Assembly: GCF_900112755.1 (NCBI RefSeq)
Contig: NZ_FOMW01000005.1
Coordinates: forward strand, 1-64,000
Direction of reading: 5' to 3'
Length of the DNA stretch: 64,000 nucleotides
Source of the DNA: Sulfitobacter brevis
Lineage (GTDB): Bacteria; Pseudomonadota; Alphaproteobacteria; Rhodobacterales; Rhodobacteraceae
The notes beneath the pieces were generated by a model. The model was not told the DNA's origin. It made no database searches and saw nothing but the letters and a program-made list of their open reading frames with translations. This document shows positions 4,302 through 59,569 of this stretch, in pieces (the stretch's first letter is position 1; each line of letters opens with the position of its first letter). A program made the position numbers and the translations under genes.

Positions 4302-4356
4302 TTATTCTAGTCCCATCCAAATTGGATTTTTTGAGATTCTTGATTATTTTTGGATA

Positions 4357-4512: not shown

Positions 4513-4545
4513 GGCTGCGCTCCTTTCAATTGGCTTGTTAAACAA

Positions 4546-5380: not shown

Positions 5381-5560
5381 GTCGATTCCCATCCTGTACG
5401 AACTTTCGAACTCTGCGATACTTAATGGAGATTACCGGCAGCGGCCCATGCCAAGAGTTGCTGGCTCTCCCTCCACCCAGAAACAACCGGAGTGAAGAAA
5501 GGGTTCCAGCACTGATTGCGTCGCTGCCCCGGACCAAGCGACAAGCGCAGTGGTTCGTGG

Positions 5561-5928: not shown

Positions 5929-6008
5929 GCAATGTTAAATTTTCGCTCTTATGGACAGCGCGCTATATTTCAGGCAAATTTTATCTGCTGAACGTAGCTT
6001 CAGGGTAA

Positions 6009-36737: not shown

Positions 36738-36740
36738 TTT

Positions 36741-39142: not shown

Positions 39143-39150
39143 GGTCTATC

Positions 39151-40134
39151 ATGTTGTCATTTCCAGACCTTGCCGCAGCGCTTTCGTTCTCCGAGCCGCA
39201 AACCTTGATCCTGCTCTGCGCGGGCTTTGCGCTGATGCTGCTCTTGGGCGGATCGGCTGGGGTCTATACAACGCGGGACCGCTCGGTCTACCGGCTGCGC
39301 AAGATGAACGCATCGATGAACCCCGGCATCTCGTCGCTGACCAAAAAGTCAGAGGCAGACCCGCGCGGCTGGAAGAAAGCGTTGATACCCGAAGATCCGT
39401 CCGAGCGGGCGCAGATCCGGTTCCAGCTGACCAAAGTGGGCTTTGACCGCGCCGACTCGGTCGAGCTGTTCTTCCTCGGGCGGCTGATCCTTGCGCTGCT
39501 TCCGCCGGTCATCGTCTTTGCGCTGATCTTTATGCTAAAGGCCAATCTTCTGCCGCTCACGGTGCAGGAGGCGGTCATGTCGGTCTCGCGTCTGCGCTTG
39601 TTGCAGATCGCTGCCGTGGGCGCCGCGGCAGGGTTTTACGGGCCAGGCTATTGGCTTAATACCCGCATCAAAAAGCGCAAAGCCAAGATTTCGGCAGCAT
39701 TTCCCAACGCGCTGGACTTGATCCAGATTTCTGTCGAGGCAGGATTGGGCTTTGATGCCGCGATCAACCGCGTCGGGCATGAATTGGGCCGGGTGGCACC
39801 AGAGGTCGCTTATGAGTTGATCCTGCTCCAGCTTGAGATTCAGGCGGGACAAGACCGCGAAGCCGCGCTTTTCGCGATGGCCGAACGGATGGGTATCGAC
39901 GAGGCGAAGTCCTTTGCGCTGGTGATTTCGCAATCGCTGCAGTTCGGCACCAGCCTGACAAAAGCGCTCAAGACCTATGCGACCGAAATGCGCCAGATGC
40001 GCGAATTGGCCGCGCAGGAAAAGGCCAACAAGCTGCCGGTACAGATGTCAGCAGTGATGTCATTGCTGATGTTGCCCGCGTTGTTCATGATCACGCTGAC
40101 GCCCATCGTGATCCGCTATATGGCGATTTATTAA
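39151..40134 (+). CDS. tadC: TadC-like inner-membrane platform protein
   Basis: 327 residues from the ATG at 39151, with GAGG 8 bases upstream. Same fold as TadB, with FPNALDLIQISVEAGLGFDA and several membrane helices. Last gene of the assembly operon. I find no CpaB, CpaC secretin or TadD here, so the outer-membrane part must be encoded elsewhere. Confidence 0.93.
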   Translation: MLSFPDLAAALSFSEPQTLILLCAGFALMLLLGGSAGVYTTRDRSVYRLRKMNASMNPGISSLTKKSEADPRGWKKALIPEDPSERAQIRFQLTKVGFDRADSVELFFLGRLILALLPPVIVFALIFMLKANLLPLTVQEAVMSVSRLRLLQIAAVGAAAGFYGPGYWLNTRIKKRKAKISAAFPNALDLIQISVEAGLGFDAAINRVGHELGRVAPEVAYELILLQLEIQAGQDREAALFAMAERMGIDEAKSFALVISQSLQFGTSLTKALKTYATEMRQMRELAAQEKANKLPVQMSAVMSLLMLPALFMITLTPIVIRYMAIY

Positions 40135-40149: not shown

Positions 40150-40713
40150 TTACTTTAGGCCGTTGCGCGCAATGTAGGTGGCGAGGTTGAGGATCAATTG
40201 GCCCCGCGCCGTGGCGATGGCCCCCGGCCCCCCCGCAGGATCGAACGGCACAGCGAGGTCAAACAACCCCGACCGCTCGCGCCCGCCGCTGGGCACCCCG
40301 ACAAAGTATTGACCCGAGGCGCGAAACTGGCCCGCAGCACTTGCGACAAGCTCGGAGAAACGCACTTCAAGGCGGGCATCTGGATAAGCCTCGAATGGCC
40401 AAGGTTCGGAGGCCACGGCGCGACCCGACATTTTCGCGAGGTTCTGGCTGAGTTCAAGCGCGATGGCGCGTTCCGGCGCATCGGCCCAAAGCACTTTAGT
40501 CGAGCTGATCAATGTGCCGTTTGCATCCTGAACATGGATCGCATCCGCCGCGGCATAAGTCGGCAAGGATACATCGCGCACCTCGACATTGGCAAACCCG
40601 ATACGGACCTGCTCAGAAACAACAGGCGGCTTGACGGCAAAGCTTTCAGGCGTGCCACAGGCGGCCAGAGTAAGGGCCAGTCCGAGGATCAACGTGCGTG
40701 ATGCATATGTCAT
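40150..40713 (-). CDS. pqiC: PqiC-like outer-membrane lipoprotein
   Basis: 187 residues. The signal peptide ends in a lipobox (LTLAACGTP, Cys19), and the rest matches the ABC-transport auxiliary/PqiC domain. It should sit at the inner face of the outer membrane and dock the PqiB tube. Starts 3 bases after PqiB. Confidence 0.88.
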   Translation of the reverse strand: MTYASRTLILGLALTLAACGTPESFAVKPPVVSEQVRIGFANVEVRDVSLPTYAAADAIHVQDANGTLISSTKVLWADAPERAIALELSQNLAKMSGRAVASEPWPFEAYPDARLEVRFSELVASAAGQFRASGQYFVGVPSGGRERSGLFDLAVPFDPAGGPGAIATARGQLILNLATYIARNGLK

Positions 40714-40716
40714 GAT

Positions 40717-43164: not shown

Positions 43165-43823
43165 TACGTCTCAGAACCCCTATCGCCAGTCGGCTTGGTC
43201 TTGGCCTGGACATCCCAGATCATGCGGGAGTCAAAGGCCTGCGCAGCCAGCATCGTGAAAATCACAGACAGTGCAAAGAACATCGCCGCAGTGCCCGGAT
43301 GGATGGATGCAAGTGTATTGAGTTGCACCAATGATGATAAAATCGCAACAACAAAGATGTCGATCATCGACCAGCGGCCAATATACTCAACGATTTCGTA
43401 CAAAACCTGCCTCTGGTGGCGCCCGCGCCCTGTCGGCTGTTGCACAGATAGCGCCAGAAATGCCACGGCCCAGAATTTGCCCAAGGGGATCACAACCGAG
43501 GCAAAAAGGATGATCGCCGCAATCCCGAGGTTGCCATGGGTGGCCAGCTCGACCGCCCCGCCAATGATTGTGCTTTCATCGACCTGAAACAGCGTTTGGG
43601 TCTTGAGCATCGGATAGATATTGGCTGGAACATAGCAAATGACGCCCAGCACCCAAAAGGCCCAGACCCGCTGTAGGCTCATTCTGTCGCGCGAGACCAG
43701 CGCATGGCCACAGCGCCCGCAGACCTGTGTGCCCAAAGGCCAAGCCTTGGTGCAGCGCGTGCAGGCAACGATGCCCATCTCCCGCGCGCTCAGGATCTTC
43801 GGGGCCGTTCCAGAGCGTTCCAT
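43164..43823 (-). CDS. PqiA-like integral membrane protein, second half
   Basis: 219 residues. A zinc-ribbon-like Cys4 start (CTRC, CGRC) and four membrane helices correspond to one repeat of E. coli PqiA, which is a single gene with two such repeats. A GTG at 43832 is an alternative start. It overlaps the upstream half-gene by about 34 bases, and both are intact, so the split looks natural. Inner-membrane partner of PqiB. Confidence 0.88.
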   Translation of the reverse strand: MERSGTAPKILSAREMGIVACTRCTKAWPLGTQVCGRCGHALVSRDRMSLQRVWAFWVLGVICYVPANIYPMLKTQTLFQVDESTIIGGAVELATHGNLGIAAIILFASVVIPLGKFWAVAFLALSVQQPTGRGRHQRQVLYEIVEYIGRWSMIDIFVVAILSSLVQLNTLASIHPGTAAMFFALSVIFTMLAAQAFDSRMIWDVQAKTKPTGDRGSET

Positions 43824-44434
43824 ACTGACCACTTACACATAAAGTTGTCCTGCGCGATTACGAGGACAACAAGAATTCCAAACATCCAGAATGCCGGACC
43901 GAAACCGACTGTGGCCAGATCGGCCACTTTCACAAGCGCGATCGCACAGCCGATCACGAATATCTCTGCCATAGACCATGGTCGCAGCGCCTCCGATAAG
44001 CGAAACGCTTTGACCGCATGGCGCGCGGGCGGGCGGTCCAGCACCAGCGGCACCAAAACATAGATCGTCAGCAGCATCCGCGCCAATGGCACCACGATGA
44101 TCAGCGCCGCCGTCGTCAGCGACAGCAAGATCATCGGCCCGCCGACAAAAGCGAGTGCGGCATCAATCACCGATACCGCGTTTTTGTTGCCCGCGGCATC
44201 AATTGTCAGAAACGGAAACACCGCCGCACCGGTGATCAAAAACACCACTGCCAGCGACACCGCGATGATCCGCAGCCCCGCATTGCGGCGCGGCGCGATC
44301 AGCACCTTGCCGCAGCGCTGGCAAATCGCCCGTTCCCCATGGGCCGGAACCTTGAGGTGATAGGCCGCATCGCACTGTGGACAGACAATCAGCTCTGCCA
44401 AGGGGAGGCTCGTATCAGGGGCGAGATCATTCAT
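43790..44434 (-). CDS. PqiA-like integral membrane protein, first half
   Basis: 214 residues. The Cys4 ribbon CPQC/CQRC is followed by four membrane helices, the first PqiA repeat. First gene of the pqi operon (two pqiA halves, pqiB, pqiC). Confidence 0.88.
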   Translation of the reverse strand: MNDLAPDTSLPLAELIVCPQCDAAYHLKVPAHGERAICQRCGKVLIAPRRNAGLRIIAVSLAVVFLITGAAVFPFLTIDAAGNKNAVSVIDAALAFVGGPMILLSLTTAALIIVVPLARMLLTIYVLVPLVLDRPPARHAVKAFRLSEALRPWSMAEIFVIGCAIALVKVADLATVGFGPAFWMFGILVVLVIAQDNFMCKWSVWNALERPRRS

Positions 44435-44558: not shown

Positions 44559-45530
44559 TTACGCTGCAGCCGGCATCAGCACCGAACGGCCGCCTTCGAC
44601 GAAGTCTTTAAGTGACAAGGCCCATGTCGTCCCCGGCCAGCGCAACTCCATCTCGCGTTTGCGCGGGCGGTAAACGGCTGTGTAGAGCGTGCCAAACCCT
44701 GCGTTGAACGCGGTCGAGTAAAGTGGCGGCTTGAGAAAGGCGTTGATGAATTTCTCTTCGGGATCGCGGTGCAAGCGGAGACGTTGCAGCAAGAACCGCT
44801 CGCGCTCGACCGTGGCAGTGAACCGCGCGTGGCTGATCCACTCGACATTCTCTTGATGGTTGGTCGCCACTGCCGCGCGGGTAATCAGGGTTTCGCGGTC
44901 CGGCCCCATCATCGCAGTGATATAGTTGCGCTTGGCGTCCAGCACGGTGACGTTATAGCTCATATGGGTCGGCACTCGCGATAACACCGCCGCCGCCTCA
45001 TCGGTGGTTTTGCAGGTTTGCAGCACATAGCGCAGGATCAAAGGCACGCCAAAGCCTTCACCGACGATGCGCCGCCCGCCAAAGGTCAGCGAGATCGACA
45101 AGCCCGCGTCATTGACCCCATCCACCAACCCCCACAGTCCATCCGAGGTGCCCATGACCTGCCGGCCCTGCCAGCCGGTTTTCAGCACCAGCCCGTCAAA
45201 GGCATTCGGATTATAGTCATAATTACGCACCATGACCGGCTCTTTGCCCGCCCAGATCGCCTGACTACAGGCCGAGAGGTAGGGCGGAGGACAATAGAAA
45301 CTGAGGAACCGCGCCGCTTGATCTCCGCCCCCTGCCAGCCCGCAAAGTTGATCGTAAAGCGGCACCATTTCGGGCATGTGTTCGGTCAGCGCACGGCGGC
45401 TGGTGGCATAGGTCGGACGCGCGGCGTCACCTTCCTTGAGCCACCACTTGCGGTAGTCGGGCCAGTATTCGGCGAAAAGCCCGGACCATTTCGGTCCGGG
45501 CATTTCTTCTGACAGGGCGCGCCAAAACAT
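44559..45530 (-). CDS. Peptidase C45 family (isopenicillin-N-acyltransferase-like)
   Basis: 323 residues, Ntn-hydrolase of the C45 / acyl-CoA:6-APA acyltransferase family. The expected N-terminal nucleophile after self-cleavage is the Cys in YLSACSQAIW (residue 88). Family members hydrolyse or transfer amide-linked acyl groups, and ones from bacteria act on varied small amides. The ATG at 45530 has AAAGG 8 bases upstream; a GTG at 45554 would overlap the ligase stop and is an alternative. Last gene of the nitrilase, decarboxylase and ligase operon, so its substrate is probably the ligase product. Confidence 0.82.
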   Translation of the reverse strand: MFWRALSEEMPGPKWSGLFAEYWPDYRKWWLKEGDAARPTYATSRRALTEHMPEMVPLYDQLCGLAGGGDQAARFLSFYCPPPYLSACSQAIWAGKEPVMVRNYDYNPNAFDGLVLKTGWQGRQVMGTSDGLWGLVDGVNDAGLSISLTFGGRRIVGEGFGVPLILRYVLQTCKTTDEAAAVLSRVPTHMSYNVTVLDAKRNYITAMMGPDRETLITRAAVATNHQENVEWISHARFTATVERERFLLQRLRLHRDPEEKFINAFLKPPLYSTAFNAGFGTLYTAVYRPRKREMELRWPGTTWALSLKDFVEGGRSVLMPAAA

Positions 45531-45550
45531 GGGCTGGCCTTTCTGGGGGC

Positions 45551-47008
45551 TCACAAGATCTTGAAGGCCGGATCAGACAGAAACGGATCAGCCTGAGCAG
45601 TGGCCAAAGGTTTGCCGTCTACGGCTTGCTTGATGCCGTGAATCCACTTTTTCGCCCGCTCATTCAACTGGAAAGACTTGGTCATCGACCGGCCCCGCGT
45701 CACGAGTATGCCGATATCGGCGCCTTCATAGCGGTAATCGCCCGGTTGCAGGATGCGCAGGAAGAACGCTTCGTTCTCGGATTCGACCGCGCGGCGGTGA
45801 TAATCGAAACGGTCAAACACCACGCTGCCGTCTTCCTTCATCTTATAAATGCCGGTTTCGGGGCAGGACGCACAGATATCAACGCTGTCATCGGTGTGCT
45901 TGATCACCATCTGCGACCAGCCGTCGATATTGTCCGGATCGGCCCAGCGGGAGTTCAGTTCATCCACATCAAGGTTGAACTTCTTCTTGGAGAACTCAAG
46001 CAGGTGGAACAGGAACAACGGCGCATCGGCGTGGGCGAAGGCCGCGTGGTTGGTCATCGACGAAGCACCGGTGATGCGCGGGTTCAACTCGCCCAACCAA
46101 AGGTCGCCGGTTTTCCGGTCGATCAGAAAATCGAGCTCGAAATAGCCGCGATAACCTTCCTTGCGGAGCTGCTCACCGAACTTGAAGGTCAGCTCACGCG
46201 CCCGCTCGCGCACCTTAGGCGGGAATGCCGTGGCGAGGATTTCGTTGCCACACCAGCCGCCACGATAGGGGGTCAGCTCCTTAAAGCCGACCAGTTCGGT
46301 CATCAGCGGGCCGACGATGGTGCCTTCTTTGGTGGCACAGCCCTCGATCGCCGCACCGCGGCAGTCGATCCGTTTCATGATCTTGATCTCGCCCTCGCCG
46401 ATAATCTCGGACTCGTGGCGACGGAAATCGGCTTCGGACTTGATAAAGAAGGTGGTGTGGCCGCTATCGCCGTAAGCCGATTGCAGCACCAGATCATGGC
46501 CGATACCGGCCTTCTCACAGGTCTTCTTCAGGTCGTCATAGGACTTAACCTCGGCCAGCACGTTCGGCACCGAAGGCACCCCCGCCTTATTGCCGATCCG
46601 CACAGTTTCGATCTTGTTGTCCATCGACTGGCGCAGCTTGGCCTTGGGGAACCAGACTTCGGCGCCGAGTTCTTTCGACAGACGCTCGGTCTCTTCGTCG
46701 AACATCAGGAAGACAAACTTGGGCTTGCCACCGCGCCGCTTGATAAAGTCGATGACCTCTTTGTGCTGCAGCAAGTAATTGTTGATGTCCTCGATGGACT
46801 GGAATTCCGCATGCGGCTGCTCGGACGGGCAGAACACGTTGGGGTGCTTGCCGCCGTAGCAGTCGATGTAGCAGATATATTTGAAGTTCTTTACCCATTC
46901 GTCCAAGCCCAACAGATTAAAGTTGGTCGCCGAGATGAAGTAAACAGGGTCTTCGTTCCGGTGAAAGAACCGGCGGATTTCAGAGATATTTTTCAGAACT
47001 GTAGCCAT
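45551..47008 (-). CDS. ATP-grasp carboxylate-amine ligase
   Basis: 485 residues. The C-terminal catalytic block with GYFELDFL and GELNPRITGASS marks an ATP-grasp enzyme, and the N-terminal 120 residues form its pre-domain. It lacks a biotin carboxyl-carrier partner, so an annotation as biotin carboxylase would be misleading; amide or peptide bond formation between a carboxylate and an amine is more likely. AAGGA precedes the ATG. It follows the decarboxylase by 17 bases and overlaps or abuts the C45 gene. Substrates are unknown. Confidence 0.85.
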   Translation of the reverse strand: MATVLKNISEIRRFFHRNEDPVYFISATNFNLLGLDEWVKNFKYICYIDCYGGKHPNVFCPSEQPHAEFQSIEDINNYLLQHKEVIDFIKRRGGKPKFVFLMFDEETERLSKELGAEVWFPKAKLRQSMDNKIETVRIGNKAGVPSVPNVLAEVKSYDDLKKTCEKAGIGHDLVLQSAYGDSGHTTFFIKSEADFRRHESEIIGEGEIKIMKRIDCRGAAIEGCATKEGTIVGPLMTELVGFKELTPYRGGWCGNEILATAFPPKVRERARELTFKFGEQLRKEGYRGYFELDFLIDRKTGDLWLGELNPRITGASSMTNHAAFAHADAPLFLFHLLEFSKKKFNLDVDELNSRWADPDNIDGWSQMVIKHTDDSVDICASCPETGIYKMKEDGSVVFDRFDYHRRAVESENEAFFLRILQPGDYRYEGADIGILVTRGRSMTKSFQLNERAKKWIHGIKQAVDGKPLATAQADPFLSDPAFKIL

Positions 47009-47025
47009 TTTAGAAGGTCCTTTTC

Positions 47026-49764
47026 TTAAGCAGGAGAAGACGAGAGGTTTTTCTTGCGCACGCTTTTCAGCGCCGCATCGGTGAAGACGCGGAGCCCCAG
47101 ATCGGGGCGGTAGCCGTGGATTTCGCTGACATCCAAGGCCCGCATGAACGACAGGATTTCCTGACTGACCACCTGCCCCGGCACGAGGATCGGAAAGCCC
47201 GGCGGATAGGGGATGATGAAACTGGCCGAGACCACTGTTTGCCCTGCATCCATCGCCTCTTTCAGCGATCCGTTAAGCTCCAGATAGTCGCAATTCTTTT
47301 CGTCATAGGCGAGAAAGAAGGGCGTGCGGATATCGCCTTCGGGGGTCACATCATCGGCGCGAAACGCCTCGTGGAAGCGGCTAAAATCCGGCAGCGGCGG
47401 GTAGTTTTCCATCAAGTTGGCAACGCGGCGATCAAACGACAAACGCTCCATCCGGCTGGCATCGTCCAACAGCTCGTCGAGCGAATTGGCGATTTCGACC
47501 AATACTTCGATCAGGTAGGCCACCGAAGACCGCGTGGTGCCGATGTTGGTCATGAACAACACGGTATTGCGCGAGGTCTTATTGATCTGAATGCCGTATT
47601 TATCCATCAGAATCTGGGTCTTGAAAGTATCGCCATCCCAGCCGGTGCCGCCAACTGCCAGCGTGACCCGGGTGGCATCGAGCACAAACTCGTCCTTCTC
47701 CCAGCAATCCCACATATCCGTCCAGCCTTGTTGCTGGTCGGAATAGCTGGTGACGCCGCTTTCACGGTGCTCCTCGGGGATCATGTCGCCCGCTGTCAGC
47801 ACCTTGAAGTACTTGTTCAGCAACGGATGGTCGGTGATCGCGCGGCGCATCGACATCGCGGCCTCGATCTGGCGCTGGACGAACTCGAAACCCTCGAGCT
47901 CCACCTGCCTGCGCCCGACATCAAGCGAGGCGATGATCTGATAGTTCGGTGAGGTCGAGGTATGGGTCATATAGGCTTCGTGGAAGCTCTGCTCGACCTC
48001 GCCCTTAAAGTCCTGATCGTTGACGTGGATCATTGACCCCTGCCGCAGCGAGGTCAGGGTTTTGTGGGTCGATTGCGTGGCATAGACCCGCACCCGCGCC
48101 GTGGGTGGCGGGATGAGCCGCGTGTTCATCAAGGTCTCGTCGTCGGCGTTCTTCAGTGTTTCCTGCTGCGCTTCATAAGCACGGGCGTGGGCCTCGGACT
48201 TGAACTTGACCCGCAGGGTGTTCGCGGCGTTCATGCCCGTCCGCTGGCGGTAGGTCGGGTTGAAACGGGCAAAGGCAAACCACGCCTCGTCCCAGAGGAA
48301 AATCAGGTCGGGCTTGATCGCCAGACATTCCTCCATCATCCGCTCGACGTTATAAACCAGCCCGTCAAAGGTGCAGTTTGTCAGCAACAGCATCCGCACA
48401 CGGTCAAGCTTGCCTGCCGCCTTCAGCGCCAGCAGTTGATGCTTGATTTCGCGCAGCGGCACCGCGCCATACATCGAATATTTGTTCAGCGGATAGCTGT
48501 CGAGATAGCAGACCTGCGCGCCTGCCAGCACCATGCCGTAGTGGTGCGACTTGTGGCAGTCCCGGTCAACCAGCACGATATCCCCGGGCCTGACCAGCGC
48601 CTGTACCACGATCTTGTTACAAGTCGAGGTGCCGTTGGTGGCAAAGAAGGTCTGTTTGGAGCCAAAGGCGCGGCTCGCCAGTTCTTGCGCTTCCTTGATC
48701 GGCCCATGCGGCTCCAGAAGGCTGTCGAGGCCGCCGGAGGTGGCAGAGGTTTCCGCGAGGAAGATATTGGGCCCGTAGAACGCGCCCATATCCTGAATCC
48801 AGTGCGAGCGGGTGATCGACTTGCCGCGGCTGATCGGCATCGCGTGAAACACACCCGTCGGTTGCTTGGAGTATTCGACCAACGCCGTGAAGAAGGGCGA
48901 TTTGTTGCGCGACTGCACCCCGCGCAGGATGTTCAGGTGCAGTTCCATGAAGTCTTCTTGGTTATAGAAAACCCGACGGCAAATCCCCAGATCAAGGCCG
49001 GCAATATCCTCGACCGAGCGTTCGGTCACCAGATAGGCGTCAAGCTCGGGACGGACCTTGGCAATCATCCGGCAGAGTTCGGGGCCATAGTTTTCAGGTT
49101 CAAGCGCGCTGATCTCTTCGCGGCCACCCGCGCGGGCAAGATAGCGGGTCAGGATGGATTCGACCATTTTGGATTGCAGCGTCAGACCCGGGCGGACAAC
49201 GATGGCTTGAATGTTGTGGTTGAACATCACCGCGATTAGCGCATCCTCGATGGACGGCACTACCACCGCCTCATAGATAAACGGATCTTCGGGGCGGCGC
49301 ATACGGGTGACGTTGGACTTGAGCCAGCGTTCTTGCTGCTCGTTCACGTTGTCAACGATGAGCACTTCGAAATAGGGTTTGCTAAGCGCGCGTGCTTCGG
49401 GGCTGAGCAACTCCTCGTCGTTATGTTCCTCTGAATCCATGCTGTCGCGTTCCAGCGGGATCGTGCGACGGCGGTAAGCACCCGTGGTCAGGGCGCGGGT
49501 GACGCGGCTTACGGCAAAGGCCATATCGTCATAATTGCCATGGGCCAACTGGCGGCGCATATAATCGAAGGCAGGCATCCCCGGAAACGCCCAATAGGGT
49601 TCGATCAGCTCCAGAGATTTGAGCAACTCTTCGGCACGTTTGACCAATACGGTTATTTCGCGGGCATTGGGCCCACGGGTCAGTGCAGCACTGGCTTCGC
49701 GCAGCGCGCTCCACCGGTCGGATCGCAACTGGATGGCAGAAGAATAGTCGTTCATTGAGTGCAT
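47026..49764 (-). CDS. Long Orn/Lys/Arg-type PLP decarboxylase
   Basis: 912 residues, fold-type I. The PLP Lys is Lys568 in QSTHKTLTSL and the ring-nitrogen Asp lies in FLWDEAWFAFAR. A receiver-like wing domain (about 130-230) precedes the catalytic core, as in inducible decarboxylases. Unlike E. coli LdcI/SpeF (about 715-730 residues), there is an extra N-terminal helical domain of about 120 residues and a roughly 40-residue charged insert between DEAW and STHK. The ATG at 49764 is chosen for GGAG 8 bases upstream. It should make a diamine or related amine; which amino acid cannot be read from sequence. Confidence 0.88.
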   Translation of the reverse strand: MHSMNDYSSAIQLRSDRWSALREASAALTRGPNAREITVLVKRAEELLKSLELIEPYWAFPGMPAFDYMRRQLAHGNYDDMAFAVSRVTRALTTGAYRRRTIPLERDSMDSEEHNDEELLSPEARALSKPYFEVLIVDNVNEQQERWLKSNVTRMRRPEDPFIYEAVVVPSIEDALIAVMFNHNIQAIVVRPGLTLQSKMVESILTRYLARAGGREEISALEPENYGPELCRMIAKVRPELDAYLVTERSVEDIAGLDLGICRRVFYNQEDFMELHLNILRGVQSRNKSPFFTALVEYSKQPTGVFHAMPISRGKSITRSHWIQDMGAFYGPNIFLAETSATSGGLDSLLEPHGPIKEAQELASRAFGSKQTFFATNGTSTCNKIVVQALVRPGDIVLVDRDCHKSHHYGMVLAGAQVCYLDSYPLNKYSMYGAVPLREIKHQLLALKAAGKLDRVRMLLLTNCTFDGLVYNVERMMEECLAIKPDLIFLWDEAWFAFARFNPTYRQRTGMNAANTLRVKFKSEAHARAYEAQQETLKNADDETLMNTRLIPPPTARVRVYATQSTHKTLTSLRQGSMIHVNDQDFKGEVEQSFHEAYMTHTSTSPNYQIIASLDVGRRQVELEGFEFVQRQIEAAMSMRRAITDHPLLNKYFKVLTAGDMIPEEHRESGVTSYSDQQQGWTDMWDCWEKDEFVLDATRVTLAVGGTGWDGDTFKTQILMDKYGIQINKTSRNTVLFMTNIGTTRSSVAYLIEVLVEIANSLDELLDDASRMERLSFDRRVANLMENYPPLPDFSRFHEAFRADDVTPEGDIRTPFFLAYDEKNCDYLELNGSLKEAMDAGQTVVSASFIIPYPPGFPILVPGQVVSQEILSFMRALDVSEIHGYRPDLGLRVFTDAALKSVRKKNLSSSPA

Positions 49765-49839
49765 CAATCGTTCTCCGTTGTACGGGTTCGAACGATGCAC
49801 TCAGGGTCCGGCGGTAGTGCCGGACGTGAACGCTTCGCT

Positions 49840-50943
49840 CTACCCGCTGGATGTATCGCCCGATCCGGTGAGAACACCGGGTTTCACGGGAGGATTAGGG
49901 ATCGCCGCAGGTGCGACAGGTGCAGCGACAGGAATATTGGCCGTGCCCGCAGACGGGTTCGGCATTGGCTCTATCGGGAATTCGCTGGCCGTAAGGCCGT
50001 GCGCCGCCACGGAATCGTGACCTTTGAAAACTGGCAGTTCCGGCACCACTTGCGCAGGCACATCAACGTGCAAGCCTGCGCGGCTGCCCTGATGTGGGAT
50101 TTCGAGTGGCCCGAGTGTGTGCAGATAGGCATCGGTGCCGCTGTCACGGTCATAGACAGAGAAGTCGGTCGACCGGTCGCGGAAGGATTTCAGAACCTGC
50201 CCCAAACCTTTCATGCCCGCCTCGCGCTGGCGGCGCACCATGCTCAGATCGACCTCGATCGGGAACATGTCTTCCTGGCCTGCCGACTGGTGCAGCACCA
50301 TGGAGGTCGGATCCACAACGCAGGACTTGCCCACACCGCCAGCGCCAAGGCCATTCACGTCAATGATATAGCACTGGAATTGTGCCGCCGTGGCGCGCGC
50401 GATCGCCAGTTCGGCATCGCGGTCGGTGGTGCCGGTCAGCACGGGGTGCAACAGCACCTCGACGCCTTGGCTGGTCAATTGGCGCGTGGTTTCGGGGAAC
50501 CACATGTCATAGCAGATCGATAGGCCGAAACGGCCCACATCCGGCACGTCAAAGACGCAAAATTCGGTGCCTGCTGCGATGCCAGCCTCATAGGGCCGGA
50601 ACGGAAACATCTTGGCATAACGGCGGATGATCTCGCCTTCGGGGTTAATCACCACCGAGGTGTTATAGATGCGGCCATCTTCAGGGTGCTTGAGGAACAT
50701 GGACCCCGGAATGAGCCAGACACGGTGCTTGGCGGCGGCCGCCTGAAACTGCTCCAGCGCTTCGTTCTGCTGTGGCAGGGCAAAGCGGTCCAACGGGCCA
50801 AAGGGGGCAAGTTCGGAGAACAGCACCATCTGGGTCCACGGGAAGCGGGCCATCAGGATATCAAGCCGCTGGATCATCCCTTCGACATTCGACTGAAGGG
50901 CGTTGACGTACATCTGGACGCCGGCAATCGCGAATGGTGTCAT
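49840..50943 (-). CDS. Nitrilase-superfamily amidohydrolase
   Basis: 367 residues with the full catalytic triad Glu44 (FSELAPFG), Lys111 (YAKMFPF) and Cys144 (SICYDMWFP). Members hydrolyse amides such as carbamoylputrescine or omega-amides, or form amides. The last 90 residues are a Pro/Ala-rich tail not part of the fold. First gene of the cluster with the decarboxylase, ATP-grasp ligase and C45 enzyme, all on the minus strand with short gaps. That suggests one amine pathway. Confidence 0.88.
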   Translation of the reverse strand: MTPFAIAGVQMYVNALQSNVEGMIQRLDILMARFPWTQMVLFSELAPFGPLDRFALPQQNEALEQFQAAAAKHRVWLIPGSMFLKHPEDGRIYNTSVVINPEGEIIRRYAKMFPFRPYEAGIAAGTEFCVFDVPDVGRFGLSICYDMWFPETTRQLTSQGVEVLLHPVLTGTTDRDAELAIARATAAQFQCYIIDVNGLGAGGVGKSCVVDPTSMVLHQSAGQEDMFPIEVDLSMVRRQREAGMKGLGQVLKSFRDRSTDFSVYDRDSGTDAYLHTLGPLEIPHQGSRAGLHVDVPAQVVPELPVFKGHDSVAAHGLTASEFPIEPMPNPSAGTANIPVAAPVAPAAIPNPPVKPGVLTGSGDTSSG

Positions 50944-51109: not shown

Positions 51110-53860
51110 TCAGGCCGCTGCCGTCTGACGCAGACCGCGCGTATTGCGCCCGCGCTGCAGGAACACGATGAGGCCCAGCAACAGCAGCGCCGGAATGAAC
51201 ATCAGATACTTGCTGGGCTGCGGCACAGGCTTGAGCACGCGCAGCACCTCTTGGTCCCAATCAAGCCCGGCAGACTGTGCCGCACTGTTATAGGTGACGT
51301 CATCCACGATCATCTTGTCGCCGTCCTCGCGGAAGAGAAGACCAGCGTTTTCAAGCTTCTCCTCGCCTGTTGCACCATCGCCAATTGGCAGCAGCGCCAC
51401 AAAAGTGATCGGATCGCCCAGATCGTTCATCCCCGCGACCCGCAGGCGCAAACGATCCCCTGCTGGCGTATCCGCCGCCGCCTGAACGATCTCGGACGGT
51501 GCTTCTTCGACGTAGGGCGGAGAGACCATATCCATCCAGAAACCGGGGCGGAACAGCGTGAAGGCGATGAGCAACAATGCGATGGATTCGTAGAAGCGGT
51601 TTTTCGCCAAGAACCACCCTTGGGTTGCAGCCGCAAAGAGCAGCATCGCGATGGTCGCGACGAAAAACACGAACAAGCCCTGTGCCCATGTCACATTTAT
51701 CAGCAGTAATTCGGTGTTGAAGATGAACAGGAACGGCAGCGCCGCCGTCCGCAAGCTGTAGAAAAATGCGATCACACCGGTTTTGATCGGGTCACCGCCC
51801 GACACGGCGGCGGCGGCAAAGCTCGCCAGACCGACGGGCGGGGTCACGTCCGCCATAATACCGAAGTAGAACACAAAAAGGTGCACCGCGATCAGTGGTA
51901 CGATCAGGCCGTTTTGCTGACCCAGCGTAACGATAACCGGTGCAAGCAAGGCTGACACCACGATATAGTTCGCCGTTGTCGGCAGCCCCATCCCGAGGAT
52001 CAGCGACAAGACCGCCGTGAGCAACAAGATCGCAAGGATATTGCCGCCAGACAGCACCTCGACCACATCGGCCAGCGCCGAGCCAACACCGGTCTGGCTG
52101 ACTGCGCCGACGATAATACCGGCCGTCGCCGTGGCGATACCGATGCCGATCATATTGCGCGCACCGGTCACCAATCCGTCGATCAGATCAAAAACACCGG
52201 CCTTAATGTCCGCCACCAACCGGCTTTCACCGCGGAAAATTGCCATCAGCGGACGCTGGGTGACGAGGATGAAAATCATAAATGCCGAGGCCCAGAAAGC
52301 CGACAAGCCCGGCGACAGACGGTCCACCATCAAGGCCCAGACCAGCACGACAACTGGCAGGATGAAATGCAGACCCGAGCGCACCGTCGGACCCGGCAAA
52401 GGCAGCGAAGTCACTGGCGCGTCAGGGTCTTCCATCTTGAGCGGCTTTTCACGCGAGGCGACATAGAGAAGCCCGGCGTAGACCAGCGAGATGAAGGCAA
52501 AGACGATATAACCCGCCGTCTCGGGGAAGGCCGGACGGATCCAGCCCATGCCGTAATAAACCGCAAAGGACACAACGCAGATCACCGCAATCGTAAAGGC
52601 GATACCGATCAGACGCTGGACGATCGGTTTGGGCGTATAGGCGCGCGGCAGACCTTCCATGCCCGCCTTCAGCGCCTCAAGATGCACGATATAGACCAGC
52701 GCGATATACGAGATCACCGCAGGCAGAAACGCATGTTTGACCACGTCGAAATAGGGAATGCCGACATATTCGACCATCAAGAATGCCGCAGCGCCCATGA
52801 CCGGCGGCATGATCTGACCATTGACCGAGGACGCAACCTCGACCGCGCCTGCCTTTTCAGAGCTGAAGCCGACCTTCTTCATCAGCGGAATGGTAAAGGT
52901 GCCTGTGGTCACGACGTTGGCGATAGAAGAACCCGAGATCAGCCCCGTCATCGCAGAGGACACGACCGCAGCCTTGGCAGGTCCGCCCTTCATATGGCCC
53001 ATCAGGCTGAAGGCGACCTGAATGAAATAGTTGCCCGCGCCCGCACGGTCGAGCAGCGAGCCGAAAAGCACAAAGAGGAACACGAAAGAGGTCGAAACCC
53101 CCAGCGCGATGCCGAAAACGCCTTCGGTGGTGATCCACTGGTGGTTGACGATCTCGGACAGGCTGTTGCCCTTGTGGGCAATGATGCTGGGCATATTCGG
53201 GCCCATAACTGTGTAGAGCAGGAATACCGAAGCCACGATCATCAAAGCTGGCCCCAGTGCGCGGCGCGTCGCCTCCAGCAAAATCAGGATGCCCGTGACG
53301 GCAACCACATAGTCTTGCATGATCGGGGCACCGACACGGTCAGCGATGTCGCGGTAGAACATAAACAGGTACAGCGCACAAAGTGCACCAACGATGGCCA
53401 GCGCCCATTCCCAAACCGGCACGCGGTCTTTGGGAGAACCGAGCACGACCGTCGCAATAACAAAAAGCGCGGGGATCGGCACCCACCAGACGGCTGTGCC
53501 GTCCTTCGCGCTGAGCATGAAGAGCGCGGCAAGTGCCAAGGGTATGATTACCCCGAGGGCGAGTTGGAATTTCGTCCGGGCTGCGGGAAACATCATGATG
53601 CCCAAGAACACCGCAAAGCCGAGGTGGATCGAACGGGCCAGCGTGTCGTTAAACAGACCGAAAGGAGATGCGATATAAAGCTGGAACAGCGACCACGCCA
53701 GCGCAACCAACAAAAGCAAGGTGCCTACCATGCCGGAAACAGACCGCCCGCCCGTATCGGAAGAGGCAACCAGCTCGTCGAGCTCCATCTGGCTCAGCCC
53801 GCCATGGCCCGCGCCGTAGGCTTCTACAGCCGCGGCCTTCTGTTGGTCTTTCTGAGACAT
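51110..53860 (-). CDS. TRAP transporter fused 4TM/12TM permease, TAXI type
   Basis: 916 residues, DctQ and DctM membrane parts in one chain, followed by a C-terminal region of about 150 residues that resembles DUF3394. Many hydrophobic helices and the DctM blocks (GLISGSSIANVVTTGTFTIP, LGMGLPTTANYIV) are visible. It uses the TAXI binding protein encoded just upstream and ion gradients for high-affinity uptake of an organic acid or similar compound. AGGGA lies before the ATG. Confidence 0.93.
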   Translation of the reverse strand: MSQKDQQKAAAVEAYGAGHGGLSQMELDELVASSDTGGRSVSGMVGTLLLLVALAWSLFQLYIASPFGLFNDTLARSIHLGFAVFLGIMMFPAARTKFQLALGVIIPLALAALFMLSAKDGTAVWWVPIPALFVIATVVLGSPKDRVPVWEWALAIVGALCALYLFMFYRDIADRVGAPIMQDYVVAVTGILILLEATRRALGPALMIVASVFLLYTVMGPNMPSIIAHKGNSLSEIVNHQWITTEGVFGIALGVSTSFVFLFVLFGSLLDRAGAGNYFIQVAFSLMGHMKGGPAKAAVVSSAMTGLISGSSIANVVTTGTFTIPLMKKVGFSSEKAGAVEVASSVNGQIMPPVMGAAAFLMVEYVGIPYFDVVKHAFLPAVISYIALVYIVHLEALKAGMEGLPRAYTPKPIVQRLIGIAFTIAVICVVSFAVYYGMGWIRPAFPETAGYIVFAFISLVYAGLLYVASREKPLKMEDPDAPVTSLPLPGPTVRSGLHFILPVVVLVWALMVDRLSPGLSAFWASAFMIFILVTQRPLMAIFRGESRLVADIKAGVFDLIDGLVTGARNMIGIGIATATAGIIVGAVSQTGVGSALADVVEVLSGGNILAILLLTAVLSLILGMGLPTTANYIVVSALLAPVIVTLGQQNGLIVPLIAVHLFVFYFGIMADVTPPVGLASFAAAAVSGGDPIKTGVIAFFYSLRTAALPFLFIFNTELLLINVTWAQGLFVFFVATIAMLLFAAATQGWFLAKNRFYESIALLLIAFTLFRPGFWMDMVSPPYVEEAPSEIVQAAADTPAGDRLRLRVAGMNDLGDPITFVALLPIGDGATGEEKLENAGLLFREDGDKMIVDDVTYNSAAQSAGLDWDQEVLRVLKPVPQPSKYLMFIPALLLLGLIVFLQRGRNTRGLRQTAAA

Positions 53861-53961: not shown

Positions 53962-54918
53962 TTACATCAGGCCTGCTTCTTTGTAGTACTTCTCGGCACC
54001 AGGGTGCAAAGGTGCAGACAGCCCGTCAGAGATCATCTCTTCTTTGGTGAGATTTTCAAAGGCAGGGTGCAACTTTTTAAAGCGGTCGAAGTTCTCGAAC
54101 ACGGCTTTCACCACCTCGTAGACCACCTCGTCATCTACATCCGCCGAAGTGACAAATGTCGCCTTCACGCCAAAGGTTTCGACGTCTGCGTCGGTGCCTT
54201 TATACATGCCGCCCGGCACGGTGGCCTTGGCATAGAACGGATTGTCGGCGACCAGCTTGTCGATCTCAGGACCAGTGACGGGCACGATATGCGCATCGAT
54301 GGTCGAAACCGCCTCCTGGATGGAGCCGTTGGGATGGCCGACGGTATAGATGATCGCGTCAACCTTGTTATCGCCCAATGCGGCGGCCTGTTCGGCTGGC
54401 TTCAGCTCCGACGCCAGCGCGAAATCGTCCAGCGTCCAGCCTTTGGCCGCCATCACGACTTCCATCGTTGCCCGCTGACCTGAGCCAGGGTTGCCGATGT
54501 TGACGCGCTTGCCTTTAAGGTCATCGAAGCTTTCGATGCCGCTATCGTTACGCGCGATCACGTTGAAAGGCTCACCGTGTACCGAAAAGACAGCGCGTTC
54601 TTTGTCGAACTTGTTGCCTTCGAATTCGGACGTGCCGTTATACGCATGGTACTGCCAGTCGGACTGGGCGACGCCCATATCCATGTCACCCGCTTTGATT
54701 GCGTTGATGTTGGCAATCGAACCACCGGTGGAGGGCGCCGTACATTTCAGGCCGGTTTTATCGCTGTCACGGTTAACCAGACGGCAAATCGACTGACCCA
54801 CAACAAAGTACACACCCGTCTGACCGCCGGTCCCGATGGTGATGAACTTTTCCTGAGCTGTCGCCGCGGTTCCGGCCACAAGAGCCCCCGCGATTGCTAG
54901 TGTTTTGAACATTTTCAT
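53962..54918 (-). CDS. TAXI-family TRAP solute-binding protein
   Basis: 318 residues with a signal peptide (MKMFKTLAIAGALVAGTAA, cut after AQA-type site) and the TAXI core (ITIGTGGQTGVYFVVGQSIC, later QSDWQYHAYNG). Delivers the ligand to the fused permease. Related TAXI proteins bind glutamate or other organic acids, which suits the neighbouring glutamate/GABA genes, but the ligand is unproven. Confidence 0.92.
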   Translation of the reverse strand: MKMFKTLAIAGALVAGTAATAQEKFITIGTGGQTGVYFVVGQSICRLVNRDSDKTGLKCTAPSTGGSIANINAIKAGDMDMGVAQSDWQYHAYNGTSEFEGNKFDKERAVFSVHGEPFNVIARNDSGIESFDDLKGKRVNIGNPGSGQRATMEVVMAAKGWTLDDFALASELKPAEQAAALGDNKVDAIIYTVGHPNGSIQEAVSTIDAHIVPVTGPEIDKLVADNPFYAKATVPGGMYKGTDADVETFGVKATFVTSADVDDEVVYEVVKAVFENFDRFKKLHPAFENLTKEEMISDGLSAPLHPGAEKYYKEAGLM

Positions 54919-57434: not shown

Positions 57435-58835
57435 TTACTTTGCTTCTTCTGCAATCGCAGCTGCGATCGATGCTTCAAAGATTTCAAGGCCTTCTTCTAC
57501 AATCGCGTCGGAGGCGGTCAACGGCACCATCACACGGATCGCGTTGCCGTGCATGCCACAGCTCAGCAACAGCAGGCCGCGCTTGAGGGCGTGCGCGATA
57601 ACGCGTTTGGTGAAATCGGCGTCCGGCTTGATGGTGTCAAAGTCAGTGACAAACTCCACCGCGACCATCGCACCCAGCCCGCGAATATCCCAGAACCGAT
57701 AAGGCGCGGCGCGCGCACCGATTTCTGCGAAACGGACCTTGAGGGTTTCACCCATCGCCGTTGAACGTGCCAGCAGACCTTCGTCTTCGATCGCTTCGAT
57801 TGCTGCCAAAGCCGCAGCACAGGCAACAGGGTTGCCGCCATAAGTGCCGCCCAGACCGCCGGGGGCCATGGCATCCATGATGTCGGCACGGCCAATTACG
57901 CCGGCCAGAGGATAGCCGCCCGCCATTGATTTAGCGACGGTGATCAGGTCTGGCACCACGCCGGAATGTTCAATCGCGAACCATGTGCCAGTCCGGCCAA
58001 AGCCCGCCTGAACTTCATCAGCGATCAACAAGATACCATGCTGGTCACAGATGTCGCGCAGGGCTGTCATCATTTCGAAGGGCACTGGCGTATAGCCACC
58101 TTCGCCCAAAACCGGCTCGATGATGATCGCGGCCACACGTTCGGGCTGTGCATCCGTCAGGAAGAGGTTCTTCAAACCAGTCAGCGCGTCCTGGACAGTG
58201 ATGCCATCGCGGACCGACGGGAAAGGCGCGCGGAAGATATCGGACGGGAACGGGCCCACGTCTTTCTTGTAGGGAGAGACCTTACCGGTCATGCCCAGCG
58301 TCAGCAGAGTGCGGCCATGGTAGCCGCCGGTAAAGGCGATCACACCGGGGCGGCCTGTTGCTGCACGCGCAATCTTCACGGCATTTTCGACAGCTTCAGC
58401 GCCAGTTGTGACCAGAAGTGTCTTCTTGGGAGCATCACCGGGGGCTAGGCTGTTCAGCTTTTCCGCAAGTTCGATATAGGGGCCGTAAGGCACAACCTGA
58501 AACGAGGTATGCGTGTAGTGGTCTTCTTGCGCCTTGGCAGCTTCGATCACTTTAGGGTGGCGGTGGCCGGTGTTCAGCACACCAATGCCGCCGACGAAAT
58601 CGATGAAACGGTTGCCTTCAACATCCCAAAGCTCGGCGTTTTCCGCGTACTTGGCATAGATTGGCGCGGCAGAGGCAACACCGCGTGGCACGGCGGCTTC
58701 GCGGCGGGCAATCATCTCGGCGTTGGTCAGGTCGGCCGACTGCACCAGCTTTGGCGAGATGGACTGCACAACTGCCATTGCCGGCTTTTTCTTTGTGCTA
58801 TTTTTGCTGGACTGCTTTTTGACGGTGCTGGACAT
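57435..58835 (-). CDS. gabT: 4-aminobutyrate aminotransferase
   Basis: 466 residues, class III aminotransferase of the GABA transaminase subgroup, converting GABA plus 2-oxoglutarate to succinate semialdehyde plus glutamate. The PLP Lys is Lys302 ([15 protein letters not shown]) and the ring Asp is Asp273 ([13 protein letters not shown]). The first 19 residues are a Lys/Ser-rich extension; AAAGGAA before the first ATG supports including it. It is divergent from the PuuR-like regulator, with a TGTTTAATATAAT site 55 bases before its start. No gabD is adjacent. Confidence 0.92.
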
Positions 58836-59017: not shown

Positions 59018-59569
59018 TTGGACATCGGACAGAAACTCAGAACCATCCGTAAGCAACGCGGCTTGTCACAGCGAGAGCTGGCAACGCGGGCGGGGCTAAC
59101 CAACGGGACGATTTCGCTGATTGAAAAGAATCGCACCAGCCCTTCAGTTGCGTCTCTCAAAAGTCTGCTGGACGCGATCCCGATCAGCATGGCCGAATTT
59201 TTCTCGACACTGGAGCAATCGGACACGCCGAAGGTGTTTTACACCGCCGATGAGTTTACCGAAGTTTCCCCCTCGCGGCCTGGGCAGGTCAGTCTGCGGC
59301 AGTTAGGCGATGCGGAGCATCACTCGTTGCAAGTGCTGCACGAAACCTATCCCGCAGGAGCCGACACCGGACCTGAATGGCTGTCGCATGATGGCGAGGA
59401 AGCAGGGGTAGTGGTGCGAGGCTCGATTGAAGTGACTGTTGACGGAAACATTTCGGTGTTGAACACAGGCGATGGTTATTTGTTCGACAGCACTTTGCCG
59501 CACCGTTTTCGCAACACCAGTGACGAGATCTGCGAAGTGATCAGCGCCTGCACGCCACCGAGTTTTTAA
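59018..59569 (+). CDS. PuuR-like XRE/cupin regulator
   Basis: 183 residues. An N-terminal XRE helix-turn-helix (about 8-60: LRTIRKQRGLSQRELATRAG) is joined to a cupin domain (about 105-175: EWLSHDGEEAGVVVRGSIEV). This domain order is that of E. coli PuuR, the putrescine-responsive repressor. The start is TTG (59018) with AGGGA upstream; no ATG fits. It reads away from gabT and probably represses it. Confidence 0.88.
   Translation: MDIGQKLRTIRKQRGLSQRELATRAGLTNGTISLIEKNRTSPSVASLKSLLDAIPISMAEFFSTLEQSDTPKVFYTADEFTEVSPSRPGQVSLRQLGDAEHHSLQVLHETYPAGADTGPEWLSHDGEEAGVVVRGSIEVTVDGNISVLNTGDGYLFDSTLPHRFRNTSDEICEVISACTPPSF

What the first reader, a model, noticed from the sequence alone, without database searches (positions are those of the whole stretch)
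44559..50943. Undescribed four-enzyme amine pathway: nitrilase, decarboxylase, ATP-grasp ligase, C45 acyltransferase
The four genes lie on one strand with short gaps. The decarboxylase would supply an amine, the ATP-grasp enzyme could join it to a carboxylate, and the C45 and nitrilase enzymes could cut or transfer amide bonds. This looks like a route to a polyamine or amino-acid amide; I know of no characterised operon with this set. PuuR/GabT genes a few kb away support an amine theme.
Basis: inference. Interest (0 to 1): 0.75.

Follow-up and report, generated by a model that had tools for sequence, protein, structure and literature searches.

The report
Conserved glutamate–GABA amide enzyme module
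Four enzyme genes that travel together through many marine and plant-associated bacteria look like an unstudied pathway built around glutamate and GABA (one enzyme joins molecules, two cut amide bonds, one removes carbon dioxide) rather than the polyamine route first suggested.

Summary
At 44559-50943 (- strand) lie a nitrilase-superfamily amidase (NIT), a PLP decarboxylase (DC), an ATP-grasp enzyme (GRASP, PRK06524, named biotin carboxylase) and a C45 Ntn-hydrolase, gaps 39, 17 and -4 bases. 77 of the 80 closest loci keep this order. Across 48 genomes (25 with GRASP, 23 without) DC is in 23/25 vs 0/23, C45 in 24/25 vs 1/23, NIT in 20/25 vs 0/23. Elsewhere gene order changes while the set mostly stays together: a real module, with no function that I found in print.

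The polyamine reading is probably wrong. DC has Asn (109/109 scored) where Lys/Arg decarboxylases have a proposed substrate-binding Glu. A sister decarboxylase clade sits beside AspT-type antiporters in 7 of 7 loci examined. The TRAP binding protein upstream is 63% identical to a proven L-glutamate binder, with 5 of 6 mutated ligand residues. GABA genes recur nearby; two relatives join NIT-GRASP-C45 to an apparent arginine-to-GABA operon without DC in the stretch.

Best model (substrates inferred): glutamate to GABA by DC; GRASP joins GABA or glutamate to an unknown amine; C45 and NIT cleave amides.

The parts
49840..50943 (-). NIT: carbon-nitrogen hydrolase (amidase of the nitrilase superfamily), Glu44, Lys111, Glu119, Cys144; C-terminal extension of variable length
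   Evidence: PF00795 104 bits; residues 107/107; no NCBIfam subfamily reaches its cut-off
47026..49800 (-). DC: PLP-dependent decarboxylase of the Orn/Lys/Arg (OKR) fold, 924 aa, related to Rv2531c; Asn740 at the position of LdcI Glu526
   Evidence: PF01276 253 bits; chain 9n0n 826 bits; Lys580 107/107 and Asn740 109/109 scored
45551..47008 (-). GRASP: ATP-grasp enzyme (PRK06524, annotated biotin carboxylase), predicted amide-forming ligase
   Evidence: NF005096 759 bits vs 684; AlphaFold2 model pLDDT 79.3; best fold matches PurK and biotin carboxylases, E about 1e-15
44559..45554 (-). C45: Ntn-hydrolase / acyltransferase, nucleophile Cys96
   Evidence: PF03417 112 bits; NF040521 185 bits vs 85; model pLDDT 92.5, best match isopenicillin N acyltransferase 2x1c; Cys96 118/118
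51110..53860 (-). fused TRAP permease with DUF3394, directly upstream on the same strand
   Evidence: PF11874 and TIGR02123; present with TAXI in 42 of 73 of the closest loci that hold at least 4.5 kb upstream of NIT
53962..54918 (-). TAXI solute-binding protein, predicted L-glutamate binder
   Evidence: 63% identical to VcGluP (8s4j); Tyr37, Ser67, Gln85, Glu116, Tyr191 match five of the six ligand residues mutated there; the five are kept in 42/42 neighbours
57435..58835 (-). GabT, 4-aminobutyrate transaminase (neighbour; GABA breakdown)
   Evidence: TIGR00700 548 bits vs 506.65; a copy at least 60% identical lies in 30 of 73 loci
59018..59569 (+). PuuR-like HTH-cupin regulator (neighbour)
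   Evidence: NF007408 153.5 bits, below the cut-off of 211; relative in 22 of 73 loci

Best explanation
The four genes are one functional module of glutamate/GABA amide metabolism, in the window placed behind an L-glutamate TRAP-TAXI importer. Proposed flow: (1) glutamate enters through TAXI-TRAP; (2) DC, an OKR-fold PLP enzyme whose side-chain site no longer looks suited to a basic side chain, removes the alpha-carboxyl of glutamate (or of glutamate held as a gamma-amide) to give a GABA unit; (3) GRASP spends ATP to join a carboxylate (GABA or glutamate) to an unidentified amine X; (4) C45, and in most lineages also NIT, cleave amide bonds of the conjugate, C45 possibly also transferring the acyl group; (5) free GABA goes to GabT and succinate-semialdehyde dehydrogenase. 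Shown: gene content, order, co-occurrence, catalytic residues, the changed side-chain position, the antiporter neighbours of the sister clade, the glutamate-site residues of TAXI. Inferred: every substrate, the direction of flow, and X.
For: Module: 77/80 closest loci in one order; co-occurrence 23/25, 24/25 and 20/25 vs 0/23, 1/23 and 0/23; set kept with other gene orders in other classes. DC: Asn740 in 109/109 scored, while the genome's own ordinary OKR decarboxylase has VEKTG with Glu. The sister clade (47-50% identical to DC; NKTSRN stretch in the three aligned) has AspT beside it in 7/7 loci, with an aspartate 4-decarboxylase gene in two and an aspartate aminotransferase family gene plus SSADH in one. 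No classical glutamate decarboxylase reaches its cut-off in this genome; one SSADH does. TAXI: 63% to VcGluP with 5/6 mutated ligand residues; [quoted passage not shown] GABA node: GabT and/or GabD relatives beside the module in L118, L160, L165, L169, L170; operons L166 and L191 join NIT-GRASP-C45 to relatives of racemase, D-amino acid dehydrogenase, ketoarginine decarboxylase, aldehyde dehydrogenase and SpeB, a route that would yield GABA, and genome G1033 (L166) has no DC of this family. C45 precedent: AzsT removes an N-succinyl group in vitro (PMC10445470, passages).
Against: No enzyme of this module has an activity known to me, and X is unknown. TAXI-TRAP is absent from 31 of 73 close loci with room upstream, and 11 of 73 have neither TRAP nor a GabT at 60%. 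In L114 and L115 the module sits among genes of ectoine breakdown, whose end product is aspartate (recalled), so Asp to beta-alanine is also possible. SpeB (annotated agmatinase) is in 9 of 123 module loci, so arginine or agmatine could matter directly. Two further DC plasmid loci without the module (L201, L206; 56% and 51% identical to DC) have no AspT, and AspT was found in none of the 123 module loci. GRASP's best fold neighbours, PurK and biotin carboxylase, carboxylate with bicarbonate. G702 carries a GRASP relative without DC or C45, and five of 25 GRASP+ genomes have no NIT.
Confidence: 0.42

Rival explanations
1. First-reader model: DC makes putrescine, cadaverine or agmatine, GRASP couples this polyamine to a carboxylate, and C45 or NIT process the amide (a new polyamine conjugation route, like the gamma-glutamylated Puu pathway).
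For: OKR fold; SpeB in 9 of 123 loci; PuuR-like regulator in 22 of 73 and GabT in 30 of 73 close loci.
Against: Asn for Glu at the proposed substrate position in 109/109 DCs scored; DC far below the Orn/Lys/Arg decarboxylase cut-offs listed; AspT antiporters with the sister clade; glutamate-type importer; an ordinary OKR decarboxylase already exists in the genome.
Confidence: 0.15
2. Tandem protected route: GRASP first makes gamma-glutamyl-X, DC decarboxylates the glutamyl part of the conjugate to GABA-X, then C45 or NIT release GABA and X (or transfer GABA). It would resemble butirosin side-chain chemistry without a carrier protein.
For: Conserved Asn740 could hydrogen-bond an amide; GRASP, C45 and DC nearly always together; L119, L120 and the Rhizobium plasmid loci have DC-GRASP-C45 without NIT in the locus.
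Against: The sister DC clade stands beside antiporters, which suggests a free amino acid substrate; NIT-GRASP-C45 also exists where DC is missing from the genome (G1033).
Confidence: 0.2
3. GRASP is a biotin-independent N-carboxylase (as PurK is) acting on urea or a guanidino compound from arginine breakdown, and NIT and C45 are the hydrolases of the carboxylated product.
For: Fold closest to PurK and biotin carboxylase; loci with SpeB, a urea-releasing enzyme type, 9 of 123.
Against: The carboxylase sequence EMNPRLQVEH (recalled) reads ELNPRITGA here; no SpeB found in 114 of 123 loci; DC, glutamate importer and GabT would be unexplained.
Confidence: 0.1
4. DC makes beta-alanine from aspartate, and GRASP, C45 and NIT handle beta-alanyl amides.
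For: AspT and aspartate 4-decarboxylase genes next to the sister clade; module within an ectoine breakdown cluster in L114 and L115.
Against: GabT/GabD neighbours and the glutamate-type TAXI favour glutamate.
Confidence: 0.13

Closest known systems
Rv2531c, probable amino acid decarboxylase of M. tuberculosis (9n0o in the review; 9n0n, 9n0p the same molecule name)
   Same: Best PDB match of DC by sequence, aligned over residues 24-914; Asn at the Glu526 position and PGQ in the aligned stretch
   Different: Its activity was not clarified according to a 2026 review (PMC12910592, passages); whether it has GRASP or C45 partners was not examined
AzsT / DobA, C45 enzymes of diazo natural-product pathways
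   Same: AzsT removes a small N-acyl (succinyl) group in vitro; DobA is assigned the same step (PMC10445470, PMC12154687, passages); the azaserine cluster also holds an ATP-grasp gene, azsJ
   Different: Substrate bound to a carrier protein; the azaserine authors think azsJ is not involved; the words decarboxylase and nitrilase do not occur in that main text
Ebony/Tan cycle of insects
   Same: Tan is a peptidase C45 family member with self-cleavage at Gly-Cys (PMC10194958, passages); a ligase joins and a C45 enzyme cuts beta-alanyl amines (recalled)
   Different: The ligase is NRPS-like (recalled), not ATP-grasp; eukaryotic pigment and neurotransmitter role
Butirosin BtrJ/BtrK/BtrG (recalled)
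   Same: ATP-grasp gamma-glutamyl ligase, PLP glutamyl decarboxylase and a hydrolase that frees a GABA unit
   Different: Uses an acyl carrier protein and other decarboxylase and hydrolase families; the six-gene run here has no room for an ACP gene
Puu gamma-glutamyl-putrescine pathway (recalled)
   Same: Ligation, processing, amide hydrolysis, GABA, GabT-type transaminase; PuuR-type regulator
   Different: PuuA is a glutamine-synthetase-type ligase and PuuD a class-I amidotransferase-type hydrolase; starts from putrescine
VcGluP, glutamate-specific TAXI TRAP binding protein (PMC11574862, passages)
   Same: 63% identity to the window's TAXI; 5 of 6 mutated ligand residues identical
   Different: Met201 is Thr, Asp157 is Gln, Tyr46 is Phe, Ser40 is Gly in the window protein

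Membership tests
Biotin carboxylase (the database name of GRASP) | score above the NF005096/PRK06524 cut-off | tested here: met
   759 bits vs 684
Biotin carboxylase (the database name of GRASP) | bicarbonate/biotin site EMNPRLQVEH (motif recalled) | tested here: not met
   ELNPRITGA in the window; E307, N309, R311 invariant in 18 sequences, no LQVEH
Biotin carboxylase (the database name of GRASP) | partner biotin carrier protein | tested here: inconclusive
   the operon gaps leave no room for one; the rest of the genome was not searched for a partner
Orn/Lys/Arg decarboxylase family (fold) | PF01276 domain and PLP lysine | tested here: met
   253 bits vs 27; Lys580 107/107 scored
Orn/Lys/Arg decarboxylase (activity) | Glu at the LdcI Glu526 position, proposed to bind the substrate | tested here: not met
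   Asn740 in 109/109 scored; role of Glu526 from docking and an earlier proposal (PMC5607190, passages)
Orn/Lys/Arg decarboxylase (activity) | NCBIfam cut-offs of Orn, Lys, Arg decarboxylases | tested here: not met
   best 220.9 bits vs 968
Glutamate decarboxylase (activity of DC) | converts L-glutamate to GABA | not testable with these tools
   inferred from the side-chain position, the AspT neighbours of the sister clade and neighbouring genes
C45 acyltransferase/hydrolase | AAT domain, Ntn fold, nucleophilic Cys | tested here: met
   PF03417 and NF040521 above cut-offs; best fold match 2x1c; Cys96 118/118
C45 acyltransferase/hydrolase | Gly before the catalytic Cys (self-cleavage site) | tested here: inconclusive
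   Gly in 108 of 118 loci, Ala in 5, Ser in 4, Asn in 1; the window protein has Ala95
Nitrilase-superfamily amidase | CN_hydrolase domain and Glu-Lys-Glu-Cys residues | tested here: met
   104 bits vs 23.2; 107/107
N-carbamoylputrescine amidase (AguB) | TIGR03381 cut-off | tested here: not met
   57.7 bits vs 410.25
L-glutamate TAXI binding protein | the six ligand residues mutated in VcGluP | tested here: met
   5 of 6 identical; the sixth, Met201, bonds the ligand by its main chain and is Thr here; binding itself not testable
Butirosin BtrI/J/K type system | acyl carrier protein in the cluster (recalled) | tested here: not met
   gaps of 101, 166, 39, 17 and -4 bases in the run TAXI to C45 leave no room; ORFs under 100 aa in the flanks were not listed
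Puu pathway | PuuA, PuuB, PuuD homologues | not tested
   not searched in the whole genome

The most novel reading that the evidence does not exclude
An undescribed pathway in which imported glutamate becomes GABA-containing amides: an OKR-fold decarboxylase re-tooled for glutamate or its gamma-amides, a new ATP-grasp GABA/glutamyl amide ligase, and two unrelated cysteine amidases that release or transfer the GABA unit. It would be carried by marine Rhodobacterales and by plasmids of rhizobia, in some next to nif and nod genes.
Probability: 0.35. Interest if true: 0.75.

Novelty: new variant of a known kind. Interest (0 to 1): 0.6.

Why it matters
The ligase is catalogued as a biotin carboxylase and the decarboxylase as an ornithine decarboxylase, aminotransferase or beta-eliminating lyase relative; these labels look wrong, and neither enzyme's product is known. 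A pathway that makes or breaks GABA or glutamyl amides would bear on glutamate use by marine Rhodobacterales and, through the copies near nif/nod genes in Rhizobium, possibly on metabolite exchange in nodules. It also offers a testable guess, acidic or amide-bearing amino acids, for a decarboxylase clade whose solved member has no assigned activity.

Tried and rejected
Polyamine route: considered and lowered because of Asn740, the score cut-offs and the AspT neighbours. S. meliloti SMa0680/SMa0682 (four papers, passages only) looked like a literature lead; the 45-kb stretch of pSymA that I took to hold them (placed from memory; the record has no gene table) has two OKR decarboxylase regions only 29-31% identical to DC and no GRASP or C45 match, so I set these papers aside. 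Early idea that DC is always lost where the arginine operon is present: partly wrong, since the XES5 plasmid has a DC of this family about 550 kb along the record (about 340 kb the shorter way) from its arginine/GRASP locus; it stands for genome G1033. Arginine oxygenase/4-guanidinobutyramide idea (DC plus NIT): dropped because NIT occurs without DC and DC without NIT. Citrulline to N-carbamoylputrescine idea: dropped, NIT far below the AguB cut-off. RNA families (no match), tRNA (none) and promoter/terminator scans (no excess over shuffles) did not help. The GRASP fold search does not separate amide ligase from carboxylase. C45 profile against PDB sequences: no hit. DC Q876 (PGQ for PGE) is a second conserved change whose role I could not place. 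GRASP and NIT subfamilies were not resolved by a tree. Rows dropped: the C45 alignment A2 leaves out L116 and L124 (my ORF helper gave short pieces) and L129, L133; A5 leaves out L124, L129, L130, L133.
Full report
What is there. Four genes lie head to tail on the - strand at 44559-50943: NIT (49840-50943), DC (47026-49800), GRASP (45551-47008) and C45 (44559-45554). Gaps are 39, 17 and -4 bases, and third-codon GC is 0.72-0.76. Two further co-directional genes stand directly upstream: a fused TRAP permease (51110-53860, gap 166) and a TAXI solute-binding protein (53962-54918, gap 101). The DC start codon used here is the first in the ORF; a later in-frame ATG is possible.

Families. NIT has the CN_hydrolase domain (104 bits) but reaches no subfamily cut-off. 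DC has the OKR_DC_1 domain (253 bits). C45 has the AAT domain (112 bits) and passes NF040521 (185 vs 85). GRASP has no Pfam hit at E 0.001 and at laxer levels a weak CPSase_L_D2 match, but it passes NF005096/PRK06524 (759 vs 684), named biotin carboxylase. An AlphaFold2 model of GRASP (mean pLDDT 79.3, 18 sequences) matches PurK and biotin carboxylases best (E about 1e-15), so it is an ATP-grasp enzyme; the fold does not fix the reaction. Biotin carboxylases have EMNPRLQVEH (recalled), whereas GRASP reads ELNPRITGA. The C45 model (pLDDT 92.5) matches isopenicillin N acyltransferase best (2x1c, E 1e-11).

Conservation. GRASP is 88-96% identical over the 80 best of 550 relatives found by a capped scan of GTDB genomes. 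By their titles these are Rhodobacterales genera or Rhodobacteraceae (one is named only Alphaproteobacteria); the order is my reading of the genus names. In 77 of the 80 all four genes stand in one order on one strand (in L090 C45 is cut); the other three (L042, L052, L085) lack one gene at a contig end. The spread is patchy: true relatives in 11 of 398 genomes of the phylum (510 bits or more; the next score is 51; 8 pass the cut-off), 11 of 385 of the class, 10 of 369 of the class of G070, 6 of 63 and 4 of 17 in two orders. I then tested 48 genomes: 25 of the 28 GRASP-positive genomes known at that point (G570, G656 and G964 left out because their matches were fragments) and 23 listed genomes of the window's family without it. 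DC of this family (400 bits or more) occurs in 23/25 vs 0/23 (three of the 23 carry an ordinary OKR decarboxylase at 151-155 bits), C45 in 24/25 vs 1/23 (a partial 169-bit hit), NIT in 20/25 vs 0/23. Exceptions: G702 lacks DC and C45; G1033 lacks DC; G453 (68% complete), G045, G073, G981 and G995 lack NIT. Gene order differs elsewhere: NIT-GRASP-C45-DC in L114, L115 and L117, a divergent arrangement in L118, DC-GRASP-C45 in L119, L120 and L171. A set kept together through rearrangement is most simply a functional unit. Catalytic residues are invariant where scored among 123 module loci: C45 Cys96 118/118; NIT Glu44/Lys111/Glu119/Cys144 107/107; DC Lys580 107/107.

What DC acts on. Its best PDB matches by sequence are 9n0n/9n0o (826 bits); a 2026 review lists 9N0O as Rv2531c and says the structure study did not clarify the activity (PMC12910592, passages). 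In lysine decarboxylase LdcI, Glu526 is a proposed substrate-binding residue (PMC5607190, passages; docking and an older proposal, not proof). In the alignments this position is Glu in an arginine and a lysine decarboxylase and Asn in 9n0n. It is Asn740 in 109/109 module-type DCs scored (one of 110 hits does not cover it), while the ordinary OKR decarboxylase of this same genome keeps Glu. A sister clade 47-50% identical to DC, with the NKTSRN stretch in the three proteins aligned, lies on Ensifer, Rhizobium, Phyllobacterium and Rhodobacter plasmids. In all seven such loci examined it stands next to one or two AspT (aspartate-alanine antiporter) genes (four of these AspT proteins were scanned and all pass TIGR03802), twice with an aspartate 4-decarboxylase gene, and once with an aspartate aminotransferase family gene and SSADH. 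Decarboxylase-antiporter pairs exchange an amino acid for its decarboxylation product (established knowledge, recalled), so an acidic amino acid is the likely substrate. Two more DC loci without the module (L201, L206; 56% and 51% identical to DC) have no AspT. Of the 37 plasmid records with a DC relative I did not examine all, and none of the 123 module loci holds an AspT.

Link to glutamate and GABA. The TAXI protein next to the module is 63% identical to VcGluP, which prefers L-glutamate and also binds glutamine (PMC11574862, passages). Of the six residues mutated there, five are identical (Tyr, Ser, Gln, Glu, Tyr), and the sixth, which bonds through its main chain, is Thr. TAXI plus TRAP permease are present in 42 of 73 close loci with at least 4.5 kb upstream of NIT, and all 42 keep the five residues. 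[quoted passage not shown] GabT at least 60% identical to the window's is in 30 of these 73 loci; 11 of 73 have neither. GabT and/or GabD relatives are beside the module in the distant L118, L160, L165, L169 and L170. The genome has no classical glutamate decarboxylase above cut-off and one SSADH above cut-off.

Link to arginine. In L166 and L191 NIT, GRASP and C45 share one strand with relatives of an amino acid permease, SpeB, a 5-guanidino-2-oxopentanoate decarboxylase, an aldehyde dehydrogenase, a D-amino acid dehydrogenase and a racemase; the Shinella-type plasmids have a similar cluster with NIT on the opposite strand. The Shinella ketoarginine decarboxylase and SpeB pass the PRK07524 and TIGR01230 (agmatinase) cut-offs. 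Such a route would run from arginine through 4-guanidinobutyrate to GABA (pathway knowledge, recalled). G1033, the genome of L166, has no DC of this family, which fits GABA as the common node. But the XES5 plasmid, of Shinella type, has a DC elsewhere, and SpeB is found in only 9 of 123 module loci. In L114 and L115 the module lies inside an ectoine breakdown cluster (DoeA and the PRK07482 aminotransferase above their cut-offs; the other doe names are mine, by position and likeness), so aspartate to beta-alanine stays open.

How it may work. I commit to a glutamate/GABA amide module: import of glutamate, decarboxylation by DC, ATP-driven amide formation by GRASP, cleavage or transfer by C45 and NIT, disposal of GABA by GabT and SSADH. 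Precedents for the C45 step are AzsT, which removes an N-succinyl group in vitro, and DobA, assigned the same step (PMC10445470, PMC12154687, passages), and Tan, a C45 enzyme (PMC10194958, passages; its beta-alanyl substrates are recalled). The identity of X, and whether GRASP acts before DC (on glutamate) or after it (on GABA), are open; the antiporter neighbours and the arginine operons favour after.

Novelty. My searches of the held library found no paper on this set: terms nitrilase/ATP-grasp/decarboxylase/C45/operon (none), Sulfitobacter/ATP-grasp/decarboxylase/nitrilase (four listed, judged unrelated from the listing), C45 family with biotin carboxylase (none), C45 names (eight found, seven listed, three read by passages), antiporter with glutamate decarboxylase (none), PRK06524 and GABA-ligase phrases (none). 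Subscription journals are mostly missing from that library, so absence there is weak evidence. Each enzyme belongs to a known family; the combination and its chemistry appear undescribed, hence new variant of a known kind.

Noticed in passing
window 55330-56946: Gene on the + strand like the FMN-binding glutamate synthase family gene of the Roseobacter ponti record; near the module in 31 of 73 close loci with room upstream; role unknown.
   Followed up: partly
L124, L125, L130, L208 (Rhizobium leguminosarum plasmids): DC and GRASP, mostly with C45, near an oligopeptide-type ABC transporter, an amidase, a MurR/RpiR regulator and a serine hydrolase; close to nif genes in L125 and to nif/nod genes in L208; in seven Sinorhizobium medicae records only part of GRASP matches.
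   Followed up: partly
L114, L115: The four genes are inserted in an ectoine-breakdown cluster (doeA-, doeB-, doeX-like, then module, then doeC- and doeD-like).
   Followed up: partly
L164, L172, L194-L197: A second GRASP subclade (44-48% identical) that stands with NIT in five of these six loci, with or without C45, and without DC in the locus; L170, of like identity, does have DC. In L195 a dimethylargininase-like gene (below cut-off) is near.
   Followed up: partly
L202, L203, L207, L209-L212: Large OKR-fold decarboxylases flanked by AspT antiporters: a probable acidic amino acid decarboxylase-antiporter system of its own.
   Followed up: partly
L165: Two C45 paralogues in tandem downstream of GRASP.
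   Followed up: no
window 35202-40134: Genes that look like a Tad/Flp pilus cluster (by eye from the translations).
   Followed up: no
window 40150-44434: PqiA/PqiB (MCE)-type membrane genes downstream of the module; the MCE gene clusters with ORFs of 20 of 90 loci.
   Followed up: no
window 1-6000: GC is 0.50-0.53, against 0.54-0.65 in the rest of the window.
   Followed up: no
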